This document shows, piece after piece, positions 3,883 through 39,289 of a DNA stretch of 57,489 nt. Positions within the stretch are counted from its first letter, which is position 1, and each line of letters starts with the position of its first letter. The position numbers and the translations under genes are program-made. Under the pieces are notes generated by a model. It was not told the DNA's origin, ran no database searches, and saw only the letters and a list, made by a program, of their open reading frames with translations. This DNA comes from a virus: IMG/VR virus record IMGVR_UViG_3300031839_001226, positions 1 through 57,489 of that record. One strand, 5' to 3'.

Positions 3883-4794
3883 TCAGATGTCAGTCGTCGG
3901 CGAGCCGCCCGGATCGCACTCGATGTATCCGACGCGCTTCTCTTCCATGCGGGTCGCCCCCACGGACATCTTCGCGTAGACCTGAGTTGCGTAGGACTTG
4001 TCGTCTCGCTCGGAGATGCGAGCCATCATGTCCGCGCCGAGAGCGAGAAGCATGCCCGACCTGGTGTAGAACGGCACCTTGTCGTCGCTGTTGCTGTCGA
4101 GGCCGATACGATTGCACGGAACGAGCGTGCAGCCGCCGACCATCGACACCTTGCCCGACACGAGCGGCAGGGCCGCGTTGTAGTCGCCGGACACGACACG
4201 CTCATCTTTGAGCAGAGACGAAATCTGGCGGGCGTTGACGACAACGAAGACTTCCTCGTCGGGGTCAACGTCGTTTGAACCGAGGAGCTTGCGCGCTTCG
4301 ATGAGCTTCGCCAGATTGAGTCCGGTATCGGCGGCGGAGACGCCAGGCCACACGGTCTGCACGTCAACGACCATGTTCGTGTCGAACGCGGTCTGGGTGG
4401 AGCCGCTTTCCCCGGTGTATGCGGTCGCATCGATGGCCGCGAGGATTTCGTCATCGATCGCACGACCGAGGGACATCATCGCAGCTTCGGTGTAGACCGA
4501 GGCCGGGTCGAGAAGCATGCGGATTTTGTCCTGGTCATCGATCAGGTCCGCCCACTCATAGTCGAACACCGACACGCGCCTGCGGGCGTGCGGGGTGTCC
4601 ATGCGAGGCGTGTCGCCATGCCGCGAGGTGCGGCGCTGTGCGGTGACGGCACCGATCTGGTCGAAGAATGCGTTCTTGCCAGTGATGGTCTCGGTGCGGA
4701 CAGTGCCGCGAAGCTTGCTGCCCTTCTGCTGTACGAGGTGGTAGACGTTTGCCTTGTACTGCTCGACAAACGCCGTCGTGATCTGGACAGACAT
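3883..4794 (-). CDS. Major capsid protein
   Basis: 303 residues. The start (ITTAFVEQYKANVYHLVQQK) and the block RHGDTPRMDTPHARRRVSVF are hallmarks of a phage capsid family found in short-tailed alphaproteobacterial phages. DYEWADLIDDQDKIRMLLDP and the helix GRAIDDEILAAI follow. It lies downstream of the scaffold gene, as in T7. GAAAGGATAAGGAC precedes the ATG, giving a strong ribosome site. The 136 bases upstream (4795-4930) hold no gene. Confidence 0.9.
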   Translation of the reverse strand: MSVQITTAFVEQYKANVYHLVQQKGSKLRGTVRTETITGKNAFFDQIGAVTAQRRTSRHGDTPRMDTPHARRRVSVFDYEWADLIDDQDKIRMLLDPASVYTEAAMMSLGRAIDDEILAAIDATAYTGESGSTQTAFDTNMVVDVQTVWPGVSAADTGLNLAKLIEARKLLGSNDVDPDEEVFVVVNARQISSLLKDERVVSGDYNAALPLVSGKVSMVGGCTLVPCNRIGLDSNSDDKVPFYTRSGMLLALGADMMARISERDDKSYATQVYAKMSVGATRMEEKRVGYIECDPGGSPTTDI

Positions 4795-12584: not shown

Positions 12585-12740
12585 TCAACAAGCCTCGCCA
12601 TCTGTCCGAACCCCAATCGGCGATCCACACACGACGCCCTTAGCGCGAGCCATAGCGATACCCAAATGGATCTCGGTCAGCACGGCTGCGAGCATCTCTA
12701 CGCGATCTAGCTTCTGATCCTTGTCAGTGGCCTTTGCCAT
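12585..12740 (-). CDS. Small protein upstream of terminase, unknown
   Basis: 51 residues. Helical (DRVEMLAAVLTEIHLGIAMA). Its TGA is immediately followed by the small terminase ATG, so translation is probably coupled. No family recognised; short length keeps confidence moderate. Confidence 0.55.
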   Translation of the reverse strand: MAKATDKDQKLDRVEMLAAVLTEIHLGIAMARAKGVVCGSPIGVRTDGEAC

Positions 12741-12808
12741 CGGTCAGCGGTCCTCTTCGGATTGTCGCTCGTGAGAATTGGTCTTGCCGCTGTTAAGCCG
12801 CGTGCGTG

Positions 12809-12949: not shown

Positions 12950-12995
12950 GTGGAGCTCCTATCGGGGGATATGCAAAATTAATTTGCGAAACCGC

Positions 12996-13026
12996 TTGAC
13001 TATCGCCAAATGATTTGGCATATTAT
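12996..13026 (+). promoter_or_regulatory. Promoter with palindromic operator in its spacer
   Basis: TTGACT at 12996 and CATATT or TATTAT at 13019-13026 flank the perfect palindrome GCCAAAT-G-ATTTGGC at 13005-13019. A repressor bound there would block polymerase. The promoter drives the two-gene cassette 13051-13493 whose second gene is an HTH protein, the likely repressor. Confidence 0.65.
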
Positions 13027-13050: not shown

Positions 13051-13290
13051 ATGAGAGCCATCGCACCGAAGGAAATGCCGAACCTGCCCGCCAAGGCTAC
13101 CGGATGGGCACGATCAACAAAACGGGCCGGCAGTGTTTTCCATGCCCACGCACTTGGAAGGCCAGTATGTGGGGCTCGATTCGTTATCGATAGGCATCAG
13201 GCAGAATTGCCTGACGGCCTCGGGTCTTTTCGTTACCACGGCGTATGCCCACGCTGCTACAAACTGTCCCTCGAAGCGGTCGAAGCATGA
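13051..13290 (+). CDS. Unknown small protein of a self-regulated cassette
   Basis: 79 residues from the ATG at 13051, seven bases after GGGAG. No recognised family. It has a basic middle (KATGWARSTKRAGSVFHAHA) and a possible metal pair GVCPRCYKL near the end. The next gene, an HTH protein, overlaps it by ATGA. The layout (own promoter, palindromic operator, small orphan gene, HTH gene, placed among virion genes) is that of anti-CRISPR/Aca loci and other accessory cassettes. Function is unknown. Confidence 0.65.
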   Translation: MRAIAPKEMPNLPAKATGWARSTKRAGSVFHAHALGRPVCGARFVIDRHQAELPDGLGSFRYHGVCPRCYKLSLEAVEA

Positions 13291-13493
13291 CCCCAGCCCA
13301 ATTTAAACAGGCCGTGGAAGCCCTCCAGTCTCGGGGGGCTATTCCACATGGGCACGGGTGGAAAACCGCACTGGCGGGCAAGCTGGGCCTCACCAGAACC
13401 ACCATAGACAACTTCGAACGCGATGGCACGAAAAAGGTTCAGACCGACTATGCCATTGCCGCCCTCGTTGCGGGGCTTGATCCCTATCCCTGA
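13287..13493 (+). CDS. HTH DNA-binding protein, probable autorepressor
   Basis: 68 residues. Begins MTPAQFKQAVEAL; the HTH is about residues 24-48 (GWKTALAGKLGLTRTTIDNF). The cassette at 39074 encodes a similar-sized HTH protein that also starts MTP..FK, so the two cassettes may be distant relatives. It probably binds the 15-bp palindrome at 13005-13019. Inferred role: repressor of its own operon. Confidence 0.75.
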   Translation: MTPAQFKQAVEALQSRGAIPHGHGWKTALAGKLGLTRTTIDNFERDGTKKVQTDYAIAALVAGLDPYP

Positions 13494-13510
13494 TCAGGTG
13501 GGGCCTCTTG

Positions 13511-13965
13511 GGGATGGGGGAGGATGCGAGGCGGTGGCGCGTATGGGCTTCCCGTAGGCTGACCGCAGCAGCAAGATAAGGGCATCAACGCCGCGCGTAC
13601 CAGCCTCGCATTCTGTACCCCTCTCATATCGGGAGGGGAAGGGATTGGGCTAGCCGTAGCCGCGAAACCATGTCGCTGACCCGCCATCAGGTGCACCGCC
13701 AACCCGAGGGAAGGCTTAGGCGAGCCGCCCAAACTGTATGCCGCTATGGAGCGGCGGAATTGAATGGGCTGCCGGTTATCACCTCAGCGGGGCCACCGCG
13801 TGTGTCGGTGCCGGAATCCCGCAACGCTGTCCGCTGGCTAAGCGGCTATTCGCGTCTTTAGGGATGCCCAACTCTGACCCGCTCATCGCGGGGAACTCAC
13901 TGGCGCAAAGGGCCTCTATCTGAGCAATGCAAAGCCACATGCCTCAACGCAACATGCGGAGGCTG
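13511..13965 (+). ncRNA. Candidate large structured RNA
   Basis: No credible gene spans 13494-14028. The stretch folds into a long helix, 13516-13541 with 13592-13621, giving about 25 pairs with small bulges, including the perfect ATGCGAGGC/GCCTCGCAT. Local hairpins follow: 13648-13661 (GGCTA/TAGCC), 13740-13755 (GCCGCT/AGCGGC), 13791-13812 (CACCG/CGGTG), 13831-13845 (CCGCT/AGCGG), 13878-13892 (CCCGC/GCGGG) and 13941-13963 (GCCTC/GAGGC with inner CGC/GCG). The first part uses several G-U pairs only possible on the + strand. No match to RNase P RNA, tmRNA or a tRNA was seen. Confidence 0.45.
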
Positions 13966-14028
13966 GGGCGAACCGGCGAGTGATCTTGCGATCCCGCTAA
14001 CTGCACATTCGCTCATCCGATGCACAAC

Positions 14029-14628
14029 CTATGCTGCCGCTTCGTTCGCGTCAATAGGCGTCAGGTCTCTTGCGTCAAATTCCACAGGAACCATGCCTCC
14101 GAGAAGTTCGATCATCGCCTTCACCTTGCGCCGTCCCTTGGCTGCTACAACGCTGCCATAGAAGCCGCTGAACGAGTGCCCTTCCTTGACAGCCACACGC
14201 AAACCCTTGTGGAACTTGGCCTTGAGTTCGTCCTTTTCGTTTGCCATGATCTCCCCGCGATATATCTTGGCCTTCCGGGTGTCATCAAACTCCATTTCGA
14301 CCTCGGCTTCACGGAACTCGCGAACGATCTTTGCTGATACCCTGGCAGGCAATCCATTGACGCCTAGAAGACTCTCGACACCATCGCATGAGCGGGCAAA
14401 GCCGAAATGAAACGGCCCACTCTCGACGCCCACGAACAGATAGCGGTTGAACAGGACGAACTCCTTCGTGATGACCGCCTTTGTCCGATGATGGATGATG
14501 TCCTTGCGCATTCGAGGCAGGTACACGTCGAAGCCGGCCGATCGCAGGGATGATGCCGCCCTGTCCTCGCAACGTATGCCGGTTCTCGCGACATACCATT
14601 GCGAGCTGTCGCTGATGTTTGCCTTCAT
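14029..14628 (-). CDS. NusG-family transcription elongation factor
   Basis: 199 residues, close to NusG length. N-terminal NGN domain: QWYVARTGIRCEDRAASSLR, FDVYLPRMRK and LFNRYLFVGV, followed by VESLLGVNGLPARVS. After a charged linker, a KOW domain reads GLRVAVKEGHSFSGFYGSVV and ends VEFDARDLTPI. The family clamps RNA polymerase and can antiterminate. It lies at the end of the leftward early operon just before the terminase genes, which suggests a late-gene antiterminator. A gene copied from a host NusG is possible. Confidence 0.85.
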   Translation of the reverse strand: MKANISDSSQWYVARTGIRCEDRAASSLRSAGFDVYLPRMRKDIIHHRTKAVITKEFVLFNRYLFVGVESGPFHFGFARSCDGVESLLGVNGLPARVSAKIVREFREAEVEMEFDDTRKAKIYRGEIMANEKDELKAKFHKGLRVAVKEGHSFSGFYGSVVAAKGRRKVKAMIELLGGMVPVEFDARDLTPIDANEAAA

Positions 14629-18040: not shown

Positions 18041-18556
18041 TCATCGTCCTCCCGGAGTTCCGGAGCGCCCGTGGTTTTCGTGGAACCCGTATTGGCGTTC
18101 TGCTGCGCGTCGTGCGCTTGCGGCCTCGTCTAGGCAGTCAAACATGCCGATATGCTTCAACTGCCCATCAAGATTTCGTATCTGCGCGCACCAACGGCCA
18201 GTCGCCTTAACCTTGTAGACGCCGCTTACACCGCTCCTATTCGTACACCTGAGCGCCTTGTTGCGCTGATTGATCTGACATGGAACCGACCGAAGATTGG
18301 CGATAGCGTTGTTGTGGCAATCACCGTTTATGTGATCGATATGTTCTGATGGCCATTCACCATGAACATAGAACCACGCTAGTCGATGACCACTGTATTG
18401 TTTCCCGTTGATCGCTATCCGTTCGTATCGCCAAGTTCTGCCGCCCGCTCGCTTGCCGGCACTCCCACTCCCGCTGCTACGCAACCAAGTGAACTCGCCA
18501 GTGACAGGATCGTAGTGGATGACCGATCTAAGCTCCTCCAGTGTCAAATCCGTCAT
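18041..18556 (-). CDS. HNH endonuclease with AP2 DNA-binding domain
   Basis: 171 residues from the ATG at 18556. N-terminal GEFTWLRSS then YSGHRLAWFYVHGEWPSEHI and DHINGDCHNNAIANLRSV form the HNH core with His, Asp and Asn in place. The C-terminus SGVSGVYKVKATGRWCAQIR is an AP2 fold used for target recognition. Free-standing homing endonucleases of this layout are frequent in phages. Overlaps the previous gene by the TGATG junction. Confidence 0.88.
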   Translation of the reverse strand: MTDLTLEELRSVIHYDPVTGEFTWLRSSGSGSAGKRAGGRTWRYERIAINGKQYSGHRLAWFYVHGEWPSEHIDHINGDCHNNAIANLRSVPCQINQRNKALRCTNRSGVSGVYKVKATGRWCAQIRNLDGQLKHIGMFDCLDEAASARRAAERQYGFHENHGRSGTPGGR

Positions 18557-19188
18557 CACCTCAACTCCCCCCGCGTCTTCGCCTTGCTCTTCGCAGCTTC
18601 CAAGCGAGCCACGTCATCATCACGGCCTTCCAGTTCTTCAATCTGCGCAAGAACCTCAGCCCTATGGGCCATCAACTCTGAGACGACCGCCTCGCGTAAA
18701 GTCTTGAGCAGATATGCGCTGACCGTGATGGCTTTGTGTCGCAGATGGTCCAGCTTCGATGCGCTGATACCGTAGTCAGCGGTGATTTCCTTCCTTGCCT
18801 CACCCATAGTGAGGCCCTTTCGTTGGCAACGGTTCCATACCAGCCTACGGGCGAGATGCTTCGCTTCCTCCGCCAAAGCAGCTTCACCAAGCGCCCATTC
18901 TTTCTCGGCCGCCGTCTCACATATTTCAGCGACTGCGCCATCAGGAAGATCGGCAATCATGCGACGAATTTCGGCACTCCCACGAAACCACTCGCCGAAC
19001 TCAAGATGCCGTGCAAAGCCGCTTTGAATCTTCTTTTCGCGCCGCCTATCGCCATTGATAACCCTGATAATCTCAAGAGCGCCGTGGTTCTTGGTCAGGA
19101 CGCGGAGACGCGCATCAAAGTTCGTCGTATAGCCGACCTTGATCAACCCATCGCGGCGACCAAGAAAGTAGATGCTGCCGGTCTTCAT
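18556..19188 (-). CDS. T5orf172/GIY-YIG-like protein with coiled-coil tail
   Basis: 210 residues. Residues 5-75 match the T5orf172 nuclease-like domain: SIYFLGRRDGLIKVGYTTNF then ARLRVLTKNHG and SGFARHLEFGEWFRG. The tail has a helix-turn-helix-like stretch (KGLTMGEARKEITADYGIS) and a long coiled coil. A second T5orf172 protein is encoded at 35835. Nuclease activity is plausible but unproven. Confidence 0.7.
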   Translation of the reverse strand: MKTGSIYFLGRRDGLIKVGYTTNFDARLRVLTKNHGALEIIRVINGDRRREKKIQSGFARHLEFGEWFRGSAEIRRMIADLPDGAVAEICETAAEKEWALGEAALAEEAKHLARRLVWNRCQRKGLTMGEARKEITADYGISASKLDHLRHKAITVSAYLLKTLREAVVSELMAHRAEVLAQIEELEGRDDDVARLEAAKSKAKTRGELR

Positions 19189-19630: not shown

Positions 19631-19845
19631 ATGAAACAGAACCCCGACAACAAAGGAGAAGAGACGATTGGTGAAGCTGCGAAGCGCCTGCTGGCAGGCA
19701 TAGATGCGCGTCGCAAAGATACGGCTCCGGGGCGCCGTCAAGCCCCCGGCGAAATCAGTTCCGAGCTGGTATCCCCGTCTCAGCTCGGTGTCAGCGGATC
19801 GGAAGGCGACAACCGCCGTAGTACTGCCTTCCGATCCGCCTTTTT
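19631..19845 (+). ncRNA. Candidate antisense transcript or small ORF ending at a strong terminator
   Basis: This sits inside the leftward operon but reads right. An ATG at 19631 opens a plausible helical start (NKGEETIGEAAKRLLAGIDA), yet the frame runs past the terminator at 19794-19845 before stopping at 19906. So either a short RNA or a gene whose end is regulated. GTAGGGTTCTGCC just before the ATG resembles the promoter motif upstream of the gene at 41702. The leftward ORF across the same stretch (19574-19873) has random-looking sequence. Confidence 0.35.
19794..19845 (+). terminator. Rho-independent terminator, rightward
   Basis: A perfect 14-bp stem (19794-19807 with 19826-19839, core GATCGGAAGGC/GCCTTCCGATC), an 18-base loop, then CTTTTT. 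No U run follows on the other strand, so it acts on rightward transcripts. It lies within the leftward operon between methyltransferase and the 126-residue gene. Confidence 0.75.
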
Positions 19846-19869
19846 GTTCATATTGGCAGCGAACGATAA

Positions 19870-20574
19870 TCATTCCGCAGCCTCCATGCGTGGAGCCAGG
19901 ATATGATCAATGGCAGCGCGTCCGATGAACTCCGAATATGCAGGCGGTATCGCTTGGGAGAGCCGGTCTCGCGGCATATACCAGCCGATGTCCATTGCCG
20001 CCGCGCCCTCAACGCGCCGATAATTGTTGCCTGCAACAGTGACAAACTCCGCTCCAGTGCTGTATCCTCTATGCGAATTTGTCGGACCATGCCGCCCGCA
20101 CTGCGGAACCATGATTATCGGGAAGTTCAGTTCGAACAGCCGGTGCCGTATGACCTTGAGCCCGAACATAGTTCCGCACAGGGTGATGGTGTTTCGGAGA
20201 GGGGCGCCAGGAACGTTCTCAATCGCCCATGTCGCTGCCGTTCGCTCCAGACGAGACCGCGTTTGCGGTATCAGATCAGGATAGTTCTTGCCGTGTATGG
20301 CGCGGGTTTTCGAATGCGCCTGACATGGCGGCGACGCCCAGATGAAATCGAATCCCTCCAGCGGGTACGTAAGCGCGTCGGCTTTGTGGAATTCGAACGG
20401 GTAGTATGGCTGCGGCTCGATATCCACACCCACAATTTCGAACCCAGCGCGGTGCAGGCCCATGGATGCGCCGCCAGAACAGCAGAACAAATCCAGTGCG
20501 CGCAGCTTCCGCTCAGGCGCACGCGGGGCGGCCTTGTATGGTGAGCGGACTGTCCATGGGTCGGTGGGGGTCAT
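19870..20574 (-). CDS. C5 DNA methyltransferase
   Basis: 234 residues from the ATG at 20574, ATGA-coupled to a small membrane gene. Motif I ALDLFCCSGGASMGLHRAGF binds S-adenosylmethionine; motif IV ASPPCQAHSKT has the catalytic Cys; motif VI is ENVPG; motif VIII is RHRLFE; the end has PPAYSEFIG (motif X region). The target domain is short, as in phage solitary enzymes. No partner restriction enzyme is adjacent, so it likely protects phage DNA. Confidence 0.93.
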   Translation of the reverse strand: MTPTDPWTVRSPYKAAPRAPERKLRALDLFCCSGGASMGLHRAGFEIVGVDIEPQPYYPFEFHKADALTYPLEGFDFIWASPPCQAHSKTRAIHGKNYPDLIPQTRSRLERTAATWAIENVPGAPLRNTITLCGTMFGLKVIRHRLFELNFPIIMVPQCGRHGPTNSHRGYSTGAEFVTVAGNNYRRVEGAAAMDIGWYMPRDRLSQAIPPAYSEFIGRAAIDHILAPRMEAAE

Positions 20575-20729
20575 TTGCCGAGCGCCTTGAGAATATCTTT
20601 GGCAACTATCGAAATCCACGCCACTATGAGAAAAACCCCGCTCGCGTCACTATCGCCAGCCATGCTCATGGCTATCGAAATGGCGCAGAAGACAACAAAA
20701 GCTGCGCCGTAAAAATTGGGTGGCTTCAT
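20571..20729 (-). CDS. Small membrane protein
   Basis: 52 residues: hydrophobic segments NFYGAAFVVFCAISIAMSMA and SGVFLIVAWISIVAKDIL separated by a charged loop. Overlaps the methyltransferase start and the previous gene's stop by ATGA junctions, which supports reality. Function unknown. Confidence 0.6.
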   Translation of the reverse strand: MKPPNFYGAAFVVFCAISIAMSMAGDSDASGVFLIVAWISIVAKDILKALGK

Positions 20730-21806: not shown

Positions 21807-21931
21807 GCGTCCGCTCCATGCGTTGAATTGGGGAGGCCGAGCACAGACGGGGAGGAGGTCGTCGCGCTCGGCCTATCGGCTGCACCGGGAGGAACGGGAG
21901 CCGATCTGAAAGGGTTGGGGAAGGTGCTCAT
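21803..21931 (-). CDS. Very small Ser/Pro-rich protein
   Basis: 42 residues (STFPNPFRSAPVPPGAADRP...). Low complexity, so composition alone would not support it, but it starts and ends in ATGA overlaps with the HNH gene and the DUF551-like gene, filling the operon exactly. Function unknown. Confidence 0.4.
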   Translation of the reverse strand: MSTFPNPFRSAPVPPGAADRPSATTSSPSVLGLPNSTHGADA

Positions 21932-22692
21932 TGAATGAGCCCTCCCGCGAATATGCTTCGATACTCCGCCGTTAACGGATCGGTCTGTTGAGTTTGATCT
22001 AGACCGCCTTCGCGCCAGTCCGTTTCATCCCACGCGCCCTTACCTTGGTTGCATTCGTCGCAAAGAACCTGAAGGTTTGAACGGTCAAGCCGTAGATGCC
22101 AGAACTTCGATACCGGCTTGATGTGATCCACGACGATGCGAACTTTTCCGCCGTGCATCGCTGTGTCTGTCGGTTGTGCCCCGCAGCACATGCACCGGCG
22201 TCCATATTCTTTCAGGACTTCCATTCGCATGCGCCGCCATTCCCACGTGAGGTAGAACTCAGTGCGCTTTGTCGCGCTCGGCTTTCGCTTCAGTGCGTTC
22301 TCTGCAACTTCGTCTCCCCACTCATTCTTCGCCGACTCCGGCGGACTCGTGTGGACTATCGGCGGGTTTCCTTCAGCAGCGCACCGAGCGATGTAGCGGG
22401 CTTGTGCGCGTTGCTCCGATGGCAGTCGTGCGATCGCGTTCCTTATGCGTCGAACGGCGACCATGAACCCCTCTCCGGGGTAAGGTCGCATGCCAAACAT
22501 CGAATGAACGATACCCCAAAGCTGCTCTTCCGAACGGATCCGCTTCTTAGGAATCCCGATGCAAAGGGACGTATAGTTGATCAGGGACGCCACCGCTCGC
22601 GTATCCCCGCGTCCGAGTTCATGCCCGAGGAACCACTTTGTTTTCTTGCTCACGCCGCTTCTCCGGCGCCAGTCTCTTGTTCGTCCAGCCAA
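21928..22692 (-). CDS. HNH endonuclease
   Basis: 254 residues. The C-terminal half has the zinc-bound HNH core: RRCMCCGAQPTD, IVVDHIKPVSKFWHLRLDRS, NLQVLCDECNQGKGAWD, with the catalytic DH and the CxxC pairs. The N-terminal half is basic and unassigned. It overlaps the Cro-like gene by 43 bases, so a later start is possible. In this place an HNH protein could act in packaging, recombination or homing. Confidence 0.8.
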   Translation of the reverse strand: MAGRTRDWRRRSGVSKKTKWFLGHELGRGDTRAVASLINYTSLCIGIPKKRIRSEEQLWGIVHSMFGMRPYPGEGFMVAVRRIRNAIARLPSEQRAQARYIARCAAEGNPPIVHTSPPESAKNEWGDEVAENALKRKPSATKRTEFYLTWEWRRMRMEVLKEYGRRCMCCGAQPTDTAMHGGKVRIVVDHIKPVSKFWHLRLDRSNLQVLCDECNQGKGAWDETDWREGGLDQTQQTDPLTAEYRSIFAGGLIQ

Positions 22693-35834: not shown

Positions 35835-36362
35835 TTGCCCGCCATCAAGAACCTGCCGGAATGCATCAAAATAGGGCGCACCTGGCGCATCGTACCATTC
35901 AACCCCGTCGAGGCTGCGTGGAACTGGCCGAAGTATGAGGGGAAACGCGCGACGCTGTACGTCGTGGAGTGCGCCGGGTACTTTAAGGTCGGGCTGACTA
36001 CAAACTTCAAGTCGCGACTGAACGCCATAAACTTCGGCACGCCGCTACCGATCCGCAAGGTAAAGACCCGCGAAGTTCCTGCCGCAGGATTAGCATATGC
36101 TGAATCGTGGGTTCATCACCAACTTTCCGACACGCGGGTCAAGGGAGAATGGTTTGCTGCGCCAGAGGCGGATATCCTAGCGCTTCTACCGAAGGCGGGC
36201 ATTCTTGCCGCGCGCTATGAGGAAGAATGCCGTCGCTGGTATTTTGATGAACGCCGACTGATGTCTGACGAGGATAGGGCCAAAGCGAAGGCAGAGGTAG
36301 CTAGGCTTGAAGCCGAACGAAACGAAGCTACGAAATCTATCGAGGCAGCGTTGGCAGCATGA
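35835..36362 (+). CDS. T5orf172/GIY-YIG-like protein
   Basis: 175 residues from a TTG at 35835 after GAGGAG. Residues 37-115 match the T5orf172 domain: RATLYVVECAGYFKVGLTTN, KSRLNAINFGTPLPIRK and AESWVHHQLSDTRVKGEWFA. The tail is a charged coiled coil. A second copy of this domain type is at 18556. First gene after attP, so in a prophage it lies near one end and may be a lysogenic accessory gene. Confidence 0.7.
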   Translation: MPAIKNLPECIKIGRTWRIVPFNPVEAAWNWPKYEGKRATLYVVECAGYFKVGLTTNFKSRLNAINFGTPLPIRKVKTREVPAAGLAYAESWVHHQLSDTRVKGEWFAAPEADILALLPKAGILAARYEEECRRWYFDERRLMSDEDRAKAKAEVARLEAERNEATKSIEAALAA

Positions 36363-38755: not shown

Positions 38756-38784
38756 TTGCAATCCTGTGAACATTGTTCTATGTT
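38756..38784 (+). promoter_or_regulatory. Promoter with palindromic operator in its spacer
   Basis: TTGCAA (38756), 17 bases, TATGTT (38779). The palindrome GAACA-T-TGTTC at 38768-38778 lies inside the spacer, the same design as at 12996-13026. It drives 38829-39289, whose second gene is an HTH protein. Confidence 0.65.
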
Positions 38785-38828
38785 GTGTGTACGGCAATGA
38801 AGCCGACCTAACCGCAAGGGGAAATGCG

Positions 38829-39077
38829 ATGATGAACTACAGGATGGAATACCAAGCCCAGAACGGGGATGACGAAGTTGTCCATCTCGGCCAGCTTTCA
38901 GTAGCAGCCGCCAGAGCGCGCGCTCGTCGCCTCAGCGAGAAGCCCGGTCACTTTTTCACTTTCGGTAACGTCGTCTACCTCATGGGTGCGGACGCTGACG
39001 GAACGGACCAAGAATTGTACACCTACTTCGCCGGCACGATGACGGAGAAGGACTTGGTGAAGGATTGGGATAAGTGA
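38829..39077 (+). CDS. Unknown small protein of a self-regulated cassette
   Basis: 82 residues from the ATG at 38829 after AAGGGG. Helix-rich middle (LSVAAARARARRLSEKPGHF) and an acidic end (YFAGTMTEKDLVKDWDK). No known family. Followed with overlap by an HTH gene, in an anti-CRISPR/Aca-like layout between the early and lysis modules. Function unknown. Confidence 0.65.
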   Translation: MMNYRMEYQAQNGDDEVVHLGQLSVAAARARARRLSEKPGHFFTFGNVVYLMGADADGTDQELYTYFAGTMTEKDLVKDWDK

Positions 39078-39289
39078 CCCCATACGAATTCAAGAACGCC
39101 CGCCTGTCGCTGACAACCACCAGCGGCGGGCGGATGACCGAAGGCAAGATGGCGACCGTCCTTAACGTCAACAAGCGCACCCTGCAATATTGGGAATCCG
39201 ATGACGGAAAACGCCCGCCTCATCCTACCGCAGTCAGGGTGATGCAGTGGTTCCTTGCTGGGTATAGACCGCCTGAATGGCCTGTCTAA
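39074..39289 (+). CDS. HTH DNA-binding protein, probable autorepressor
   Basis: 71 residues from a GTG at 39074. HTH: MTEGKMATVLNVNKRTLQYW then ESDDGKRPPHPTAVRVMQWF. The recognition-helix ending RTLQYWES resembles Aca-type repressors of anti-CRISPR operons and other small XRE proteins. It begins MTPYEFK, like the HTH protein at 13287. Likely binds GAACATTGTTC upstream. Confidence 0.75.
   Translation: MTPYEFKNARLSLTTTSGGRMTEGKMATVLNVNKRTLQYWESDDGKRPPHPTAVRVMQWFLAGYRPPEWPV

What the first reader, a model, noticed from the sequence alone, without database searches (positions are those of the whole stretch)
13494..14028. About 500 bp of gene-free DNA that folds like a large structured RNA
Seen: no gene; a near-continuous helix of about 25 pairs (13516-13541 with 13592-13621) and at least six further short hairpins. 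G-U pairs in the long helix only form on the + strand, so the RNA would read right, continuing from the small-gene/HTH cassette. Large phage RNAs of unknown function (GOLLD, ROOL type) are known; this one matches none I recognise. It also sits between the NusG-like gene and the terminase genes, where it could serve antitermination or packaging instead.
Basis: partly seen in the sequence, partly recalled or inferred. Interest (0 to 1): 0.8.

Follow-up and report, generated by a model that had tools for sequence, protein, structure and literature searches.

The report
Gene-free tail of phage HTH cassette
A temperate phage carries a small self-regulated gene cassette followed by 535 bases that code for nothing; the first 120 bases form one strong hairpin, but nothing measurable shows that the rest is a large folded RNA.

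Summary
The gene-free stretch is real. Window 13494-14028 has no codon signal, no period-3 signal (the lowest 400-nt windows of the genome lie here) and no protein-family match. The long helix is real (28 pairs, 13511-13540 with 13593-13625) and favours the + strand: z about -3.8 on +, -1.8 on -. The remaining 400 nt fold no better than shuffled sequence, and the further short hairpins are at chance number. No Rfam family matches. No homologue of the stretch was found in phages, plasmids or IMG/VR, so covariation cannot be tested.

Comparison gave a better context. The stretch is the 3' end of a rightward, moron-like cassette set against the late genes of a temperate, podovirus-like phage: promoter with a palindromic operator, a small gene, an HTH gene, then this stretch. 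One other phage contig (L007) shares the operator-promoter (30 of 33 bases) and the HTH protein (78%), but has an unrelated small gene and, in place of this stretch, a T5orf172/MUG113 gene. So this looks like a variable cargo slot.

Most likely it is a transcribed, untranslated 3' tail with one stabilising or terminating hairpin. A new phage RNA remains possible (about 0.2) but unproven.

The parts
12992..13024 (+). promoter with palindromic operator GCCAA-N5-TTGGC between TTGACT and the -10 region
   Evidence: 30 of 33 bases identical to the matching stretch of L007 (about 4759-4791) although the gene that follows is unrelated; promoter-like by consensus scan; one copy in the window; one IMG/VR contig with an exact pattern match
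13051..13290 (+). small ORF1 (79 aa), no family; replaced by an unrelated small ORF in L007
   Evidence: GGGAG ribosome-binding-like sequence upstream; no Pfam match and no significant PHROGs match; not alignable to the L007 ORF
13287..13493 (+). HTH protein (68 aa), start overlaps the stop of ORF1 (ATGA); likely autoregulator of the cassette
   Evidence: 78% identical to L007:5001-5216; weak HTH_3 match, E 0.084; weak profile match to HipB antitoxins, E 0.051
13511..13625 (+). imperfect long hairpin with branched top, starting 18 nt after the HTH stop codon; 28 outer pairs in five segments
   Evidence: z -3.7 to -3.9 on +, -1.8 on -
13618..13638 (+). alternative second hairpin CCCCTCTC/GGGAGGGG, competing with the outer end of the long hairpin for 13618-13625; no T run follows
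   Evidence: pair probability above 0.8 in the whole-region fold; no + strand terminator found in the region
13629..14028 (+). rest of the non-coding stretch: no structure beyond composition, no homologue; position of the variable cargo slot that holds a T5orf172/MUG113 gene in L007 (L007:5206-5685)
   Evidence: z -0.58/-0.24; period-3 absent; L007 slot content
14029..14628 (-). NusG-like protein (199 aa), convergent neighbour
   Evidence: Pfam NusG E 1e-11; phrog_6386 transcription antiterminator E 6.5e-25

Best explanation
The stretch is the untranslated 3' end of a moron-like cassette in a temperate podovirus-like phage. The cassette is transcribed rightward from its own promoter, whose spacer carries a palindromic operator that the cassette's HTH protein probably binds to limit its own expression. 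The mRNA continues past the HTH stop codon and folds at once into a strong imperfect hairpin (13511-13625), which most likely protects or ends the HTH mRNA. The following 400 bases lie in the slot where a related cassette carries a T5orf172/MUG113 gene. They are probably replaceable DNA left by cargo exchange rather than a working RNA. Shown: non-coding, the hairpin, the conserved promoter-operator and HTH protein, the difference in both the middle gene and the 3' cargo. Inferred: transcription, autoregulation, the role of the hairpin, the lack of function of the last 400 bases.
For: Same promoter-operator and HTH protein in L007 with a different middle gene and a T5orf172 gene in the slot. 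The cassette lies against the late genes, next to the terminase genes in both contigs. A repressor and an integrase in the window point to a temperate phage. The hairpin starts 18 nt after the last stop codon and is well below the shuffle mean on +. The last 400 nt show no structure signal. Relatives that share late genes show no match to the stretch.
Against: There is no T run after either hairpin. The stretch is GC-rich (62.4%, top 5% of windows) and in the longest gene-free region here, whereas phages tend to lose useless DNA (general knowledge). Period-3 is wholly absent, so it is not a recent pseudogene. Only one related cassette was found, so 'variable slot' rests on two examples.
Confidence: 0.45

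Rival explanations
1. A functional structured non-coding RNA of a new class, carried as cargo of the cassette and made from its promoter during lysogeny.
For: Non-coding with no period-3 signal, GC-rich, strong + strand hairpin, plausible rightward promoter.
Against: 13629-14028 folds like shuffled sequence; no Rfam match; no homologue found.
Confidence: 0.2
2. A cis-acting RNA element on the leftward late transcript, target of the neighbouring NusG-like antiterminator. The gene 14029-14628 ends just before it and the terminase genes follow downstream.
For: NusG-like protein of an antiterminator family immediately upstream on the - strand; terminase genes downstream on the same strand.
Against: The - strand folds at chance (z -0.5 to -0.7), and L008 and L009, which share late genes, have no match to the stretch.
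Confidence: 0.1
3. A DNA site rather than an RNA: packaging (cos/pac) or replication origin near the terminase genes.
For: Large gene-free stretch about 0.9-1.4 kb upstream of the small terminase gene.
Against: No iterons or repeat arrays in the stretch; a foreign cassette separates it from the small terminase gene; relatives with 62-81% identical portal, terminase and head proteins have no match to it.
Confidence: 0.12
4. One or more undetected small proteins, for example the 61-63 aa ORFs at 13670-13861 and 13738-13923.
For: Other genes here (ORF1, the putative methyltransferase at 19870-20619) also have weak codon or period-3 signal.
Against: ORF lengths at or below chance, no tblastn match, no family match.
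Confidence: 0.08

Closest known systems
Phage moron cassettes (independently transcribed accessory genes of temperate phages)
   Same: Own promoter, oriented against the late genes, patchy presence, exchangeable content
   Different: The 3' slot here holds no gene; transcription during lysogeny was not tested
ROOL and GOLLD ornate phage RNAs (PMC12286853)
   Same: Large gene-free stretch in a phage genome
   Different: No covariance-model match, no tRNA genes in the window, no structure signal beyond 120 nt
3'-UTR stabilising or terminating hairpins
   Same: Strong stem-loop 18 nt after the last stop codon of an operon
   Different: No U tract; multibranched top; effect not tested

Membership tests
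ROOL / GOLLD ornate RNAs | matches the family's covariance model | tested here: not met
   No match at gathering score over the window and no ROOL or GOLLD match at E up to 5-10 on the region
ROOL / GOLLD ornate RNAs | elaborate secondary structure supported by covariation | not testable with these tools
   No homologue found
ROOL / GOLLD ornate RNAs | often encoded near tRNA islands (PMC12286853) | tested here: not met
   No tRNA in the window
Phage moron cassette | own promoter, oriented against the surrounding late genes | tested here: met
   Promoter-like site at 12996, conserved with L007; flanking genes on the - strand. By sequence only; promoter activity not measured
Phage moron cassette | absent at the same place in related phages | tested here: met
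   L008 and L009 share late genes but have no match to the 535-nt stretch; the HTH and operator scans found only L007
Phage moron cassette | expressed from the prophage | not testable with these tools
   No expression data
Intrinsic terminator | GC-rich stem followed by a U run | tested here: not met
   No + strand terminator in 13494-14028
Group I/II introns, RNase P, tmRNA and other Rfam families | covariance model match | tested here: not met

The most novel reading that the evidence does not exclude
The 535-nt stretch is a new class of phage RNA that travels as exchangeable cargo in an HTH-autoregulated cassette and acts during lysogeny, in the same slot where a sister cassette carries a T5orf172-domain gene.
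Probability: 0.18. Interest if true: 0.65.

Novelty: new member of a known kind. Interest (0 to 1): 0.27.

Why it matters
If the stretch made a functional RNA, it would show that phage accessory cassettes can trade RNA cargo for protein cargo behind one regulator. As it stands, it mainly adds a modular, probably self-regulated cassette with two exchangeable positions in phages with different terminases, and a caution: a gene-free GC-rich stretch yields many convincing hairpins by chance.

Tried and rejected
Rfam at gathering and permissive thresholds: only a chance match to a viral miRNA precursor model, E 3.3, 17.9 bits against a cut-off of 97. blastn at E 10 in phages and plasmids: short (24-39 nt) chance matches only. 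Pseudo-protein seeds from open frames of the stretch, used as multi-seed DNA probes in IMG/VR: no relative. Terminase relatives in IMG/VR: 20 loci, searched as whole records for the stretch with the other relatives, only short chance matches. Decayed T5orf172 gene: no trace by tblastn or period-3. A 45-nt match between 12735-12779 and L008 looked like a conserved packaging site, but it is the leader and start codon of a small ORF. A genome-wide 535-nt fold background was stopped by the time limit; the 121-nt background was used instead.

Full report
Observation. Window 13494-14028 is non-coding: codon scores are negative in all six frames, ORFs wholly inside are shorter than in shuffles (63 aa against a mean of 92), frames read through match no Pfam or PHROGs family beyond chance, and period-3 power is among the lowest of the genome. 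The stretch belongs to the longest region of the window without an 85-aa ORF (13291-14019). It is GC-rich (62.4% against 58.3%, top 5% of windows).

Fold. For 13508-13628, z is -3.7 to -3.9 on + and about -1.8 on -. The limits were chosen after seeing the fold, and at least eight other 121-nt windows in this genome reach z of -3.6 or lower. The whole stretch has z -1.6 on + (8 of 100 shuffles fold as well) and -0.5 to -0.7 on -. Without the hairpin, 13629-14028 is at chance on both strands. Ensemble diversity, pairing confidence and the number of short hairpins are at chance on +. E. coli rnpB under the same test gives z -2.7, its complement -0.6. So the claim of a large structured RNA rests on one hairpin.

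Known RNAs and homologues. Rfam gives no match on the window, and only a chance match on the region at E up to 10; ARAGORN finds no tRNA or tmRNA. blastn finds no homologue in phages or plasmids (at E 10 only short chance matches). Whole IMG/VR records of 23 relatives have only short chance matches (31 nt at best, E 0.001). Multi-seed probes of both halves in IMG/VR find nothing. Covariation is therefore not testable here.

Context. The window is a virus record of a temperate, podovirus-like phage: head-tail adaptor, head protein, internal virion protein with an endolysin/transglycosylase-like domain, CI-like repressor, integrase. A GcrA-like protein suggests an alphaproteobacterial host (inference). 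Near the stretch, the genes run leftward: NusG-like, then further left the small and large terminase subunits. The two exceptions, ORF1 (13051-13290) and the HTH gene (13287-13493), run rightward and overlap by ATGA.

The cassette elsewhere. A scan with the HTH protein found one relative, L007 on a 28-kb IMG/VR contig, at 78% identity; a scan for the operator found the same contig only. In L007 the cassette again runs against the terminase genes and lies between what look like the large (L007:3090-4667) and small (L007:5688-6203) subunits (naming by sequence inspection). The promoter-operator CCGCTTGACTATNGCCAAATNANTTGGCATATT agrees at 30 of 33 bases, the HTH gene at 72% of bases, but the gene between them is unrelated. 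The position after the HTH gene holds a T5orf172/MUG113 gene (Pfam E 1e-16 for MUG113 and 4e-11 for T5orf172) with no similarity to the stretch. The scans with the window's terminase did not return L007's contig, and the two large subunits look different by sequence, so the cassette appears to move between phages. Relatives L008 and L009, which share 62-81% identity in portal, terminase and head proteins, have no match to the stretch.

Interpretation. Shown: a modular cassette with a constant promoter-operator and HTH protein and two positions that differ between the two examples; the non-coding stretch occupies the second. Inferred: the HTH protein represses its own promoter by binding GCCAA-N5-TTGGC; the mRNA runs into the stretch; the hairpin 18 nt after the stop codon protects or ends the mRNA; the last 400 bases are leftover or filler DNA. 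A true RNA gene would fit the GC content, the lack of coding signal and the promoter, but has no positive evidence beyond the hairpin. Antitermination and packaging roles have only positional support.

Verdict. The gene-free stretch and the helix are real, the large structured RNA is not supported, and known RNA families were tested without a match. Interest is low to moderate and depends on expression data or new relatives.

Noticed in passing
window 21833-21953: Strongest local fold of the 121-nt windows scanned (z -6.2 on -, -4.0 on +), with a GCCGAGC/GCTCGGC inverted repeat; only chance-level Rfam matches (best in this stretch: alphaproteobacterial sRNA ar14, E 2.9, far below cut-off).
   Followed up: partly
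window 19733-19853: Second strongest local fold (+, z -5.0); Rfam gives only a chance-level match to Scr4115 (E 3.9).
   Followed up: partly
window 18556-19188 and 35943-36308: Two T5orf172/MUG113-like stretches in the window, the family that fills the slot in the sister cassette of L007.
   Followed up: no
window 14029-14628: Phage NusG-like antiterminator (phrog_6386) encoded near the terminase genes; its relatives in L002 and L003 are only 34% identical.
   Followed up: no
window 38766-39289: Another small gene plus HTH-like 71-aa gene pair (VTPYEFKNARLSL...), also rightward and with a start overlapping the stop of the gene before it.
   Followed up: no
L007:4759-5685: Sister cassette: operator-promoter, unrelated small ORF, HTH and a T5orf172 protein with weak similarity to the candidate defence models PDC-S57 and PD-Lambda-1.
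   Followed up: partly
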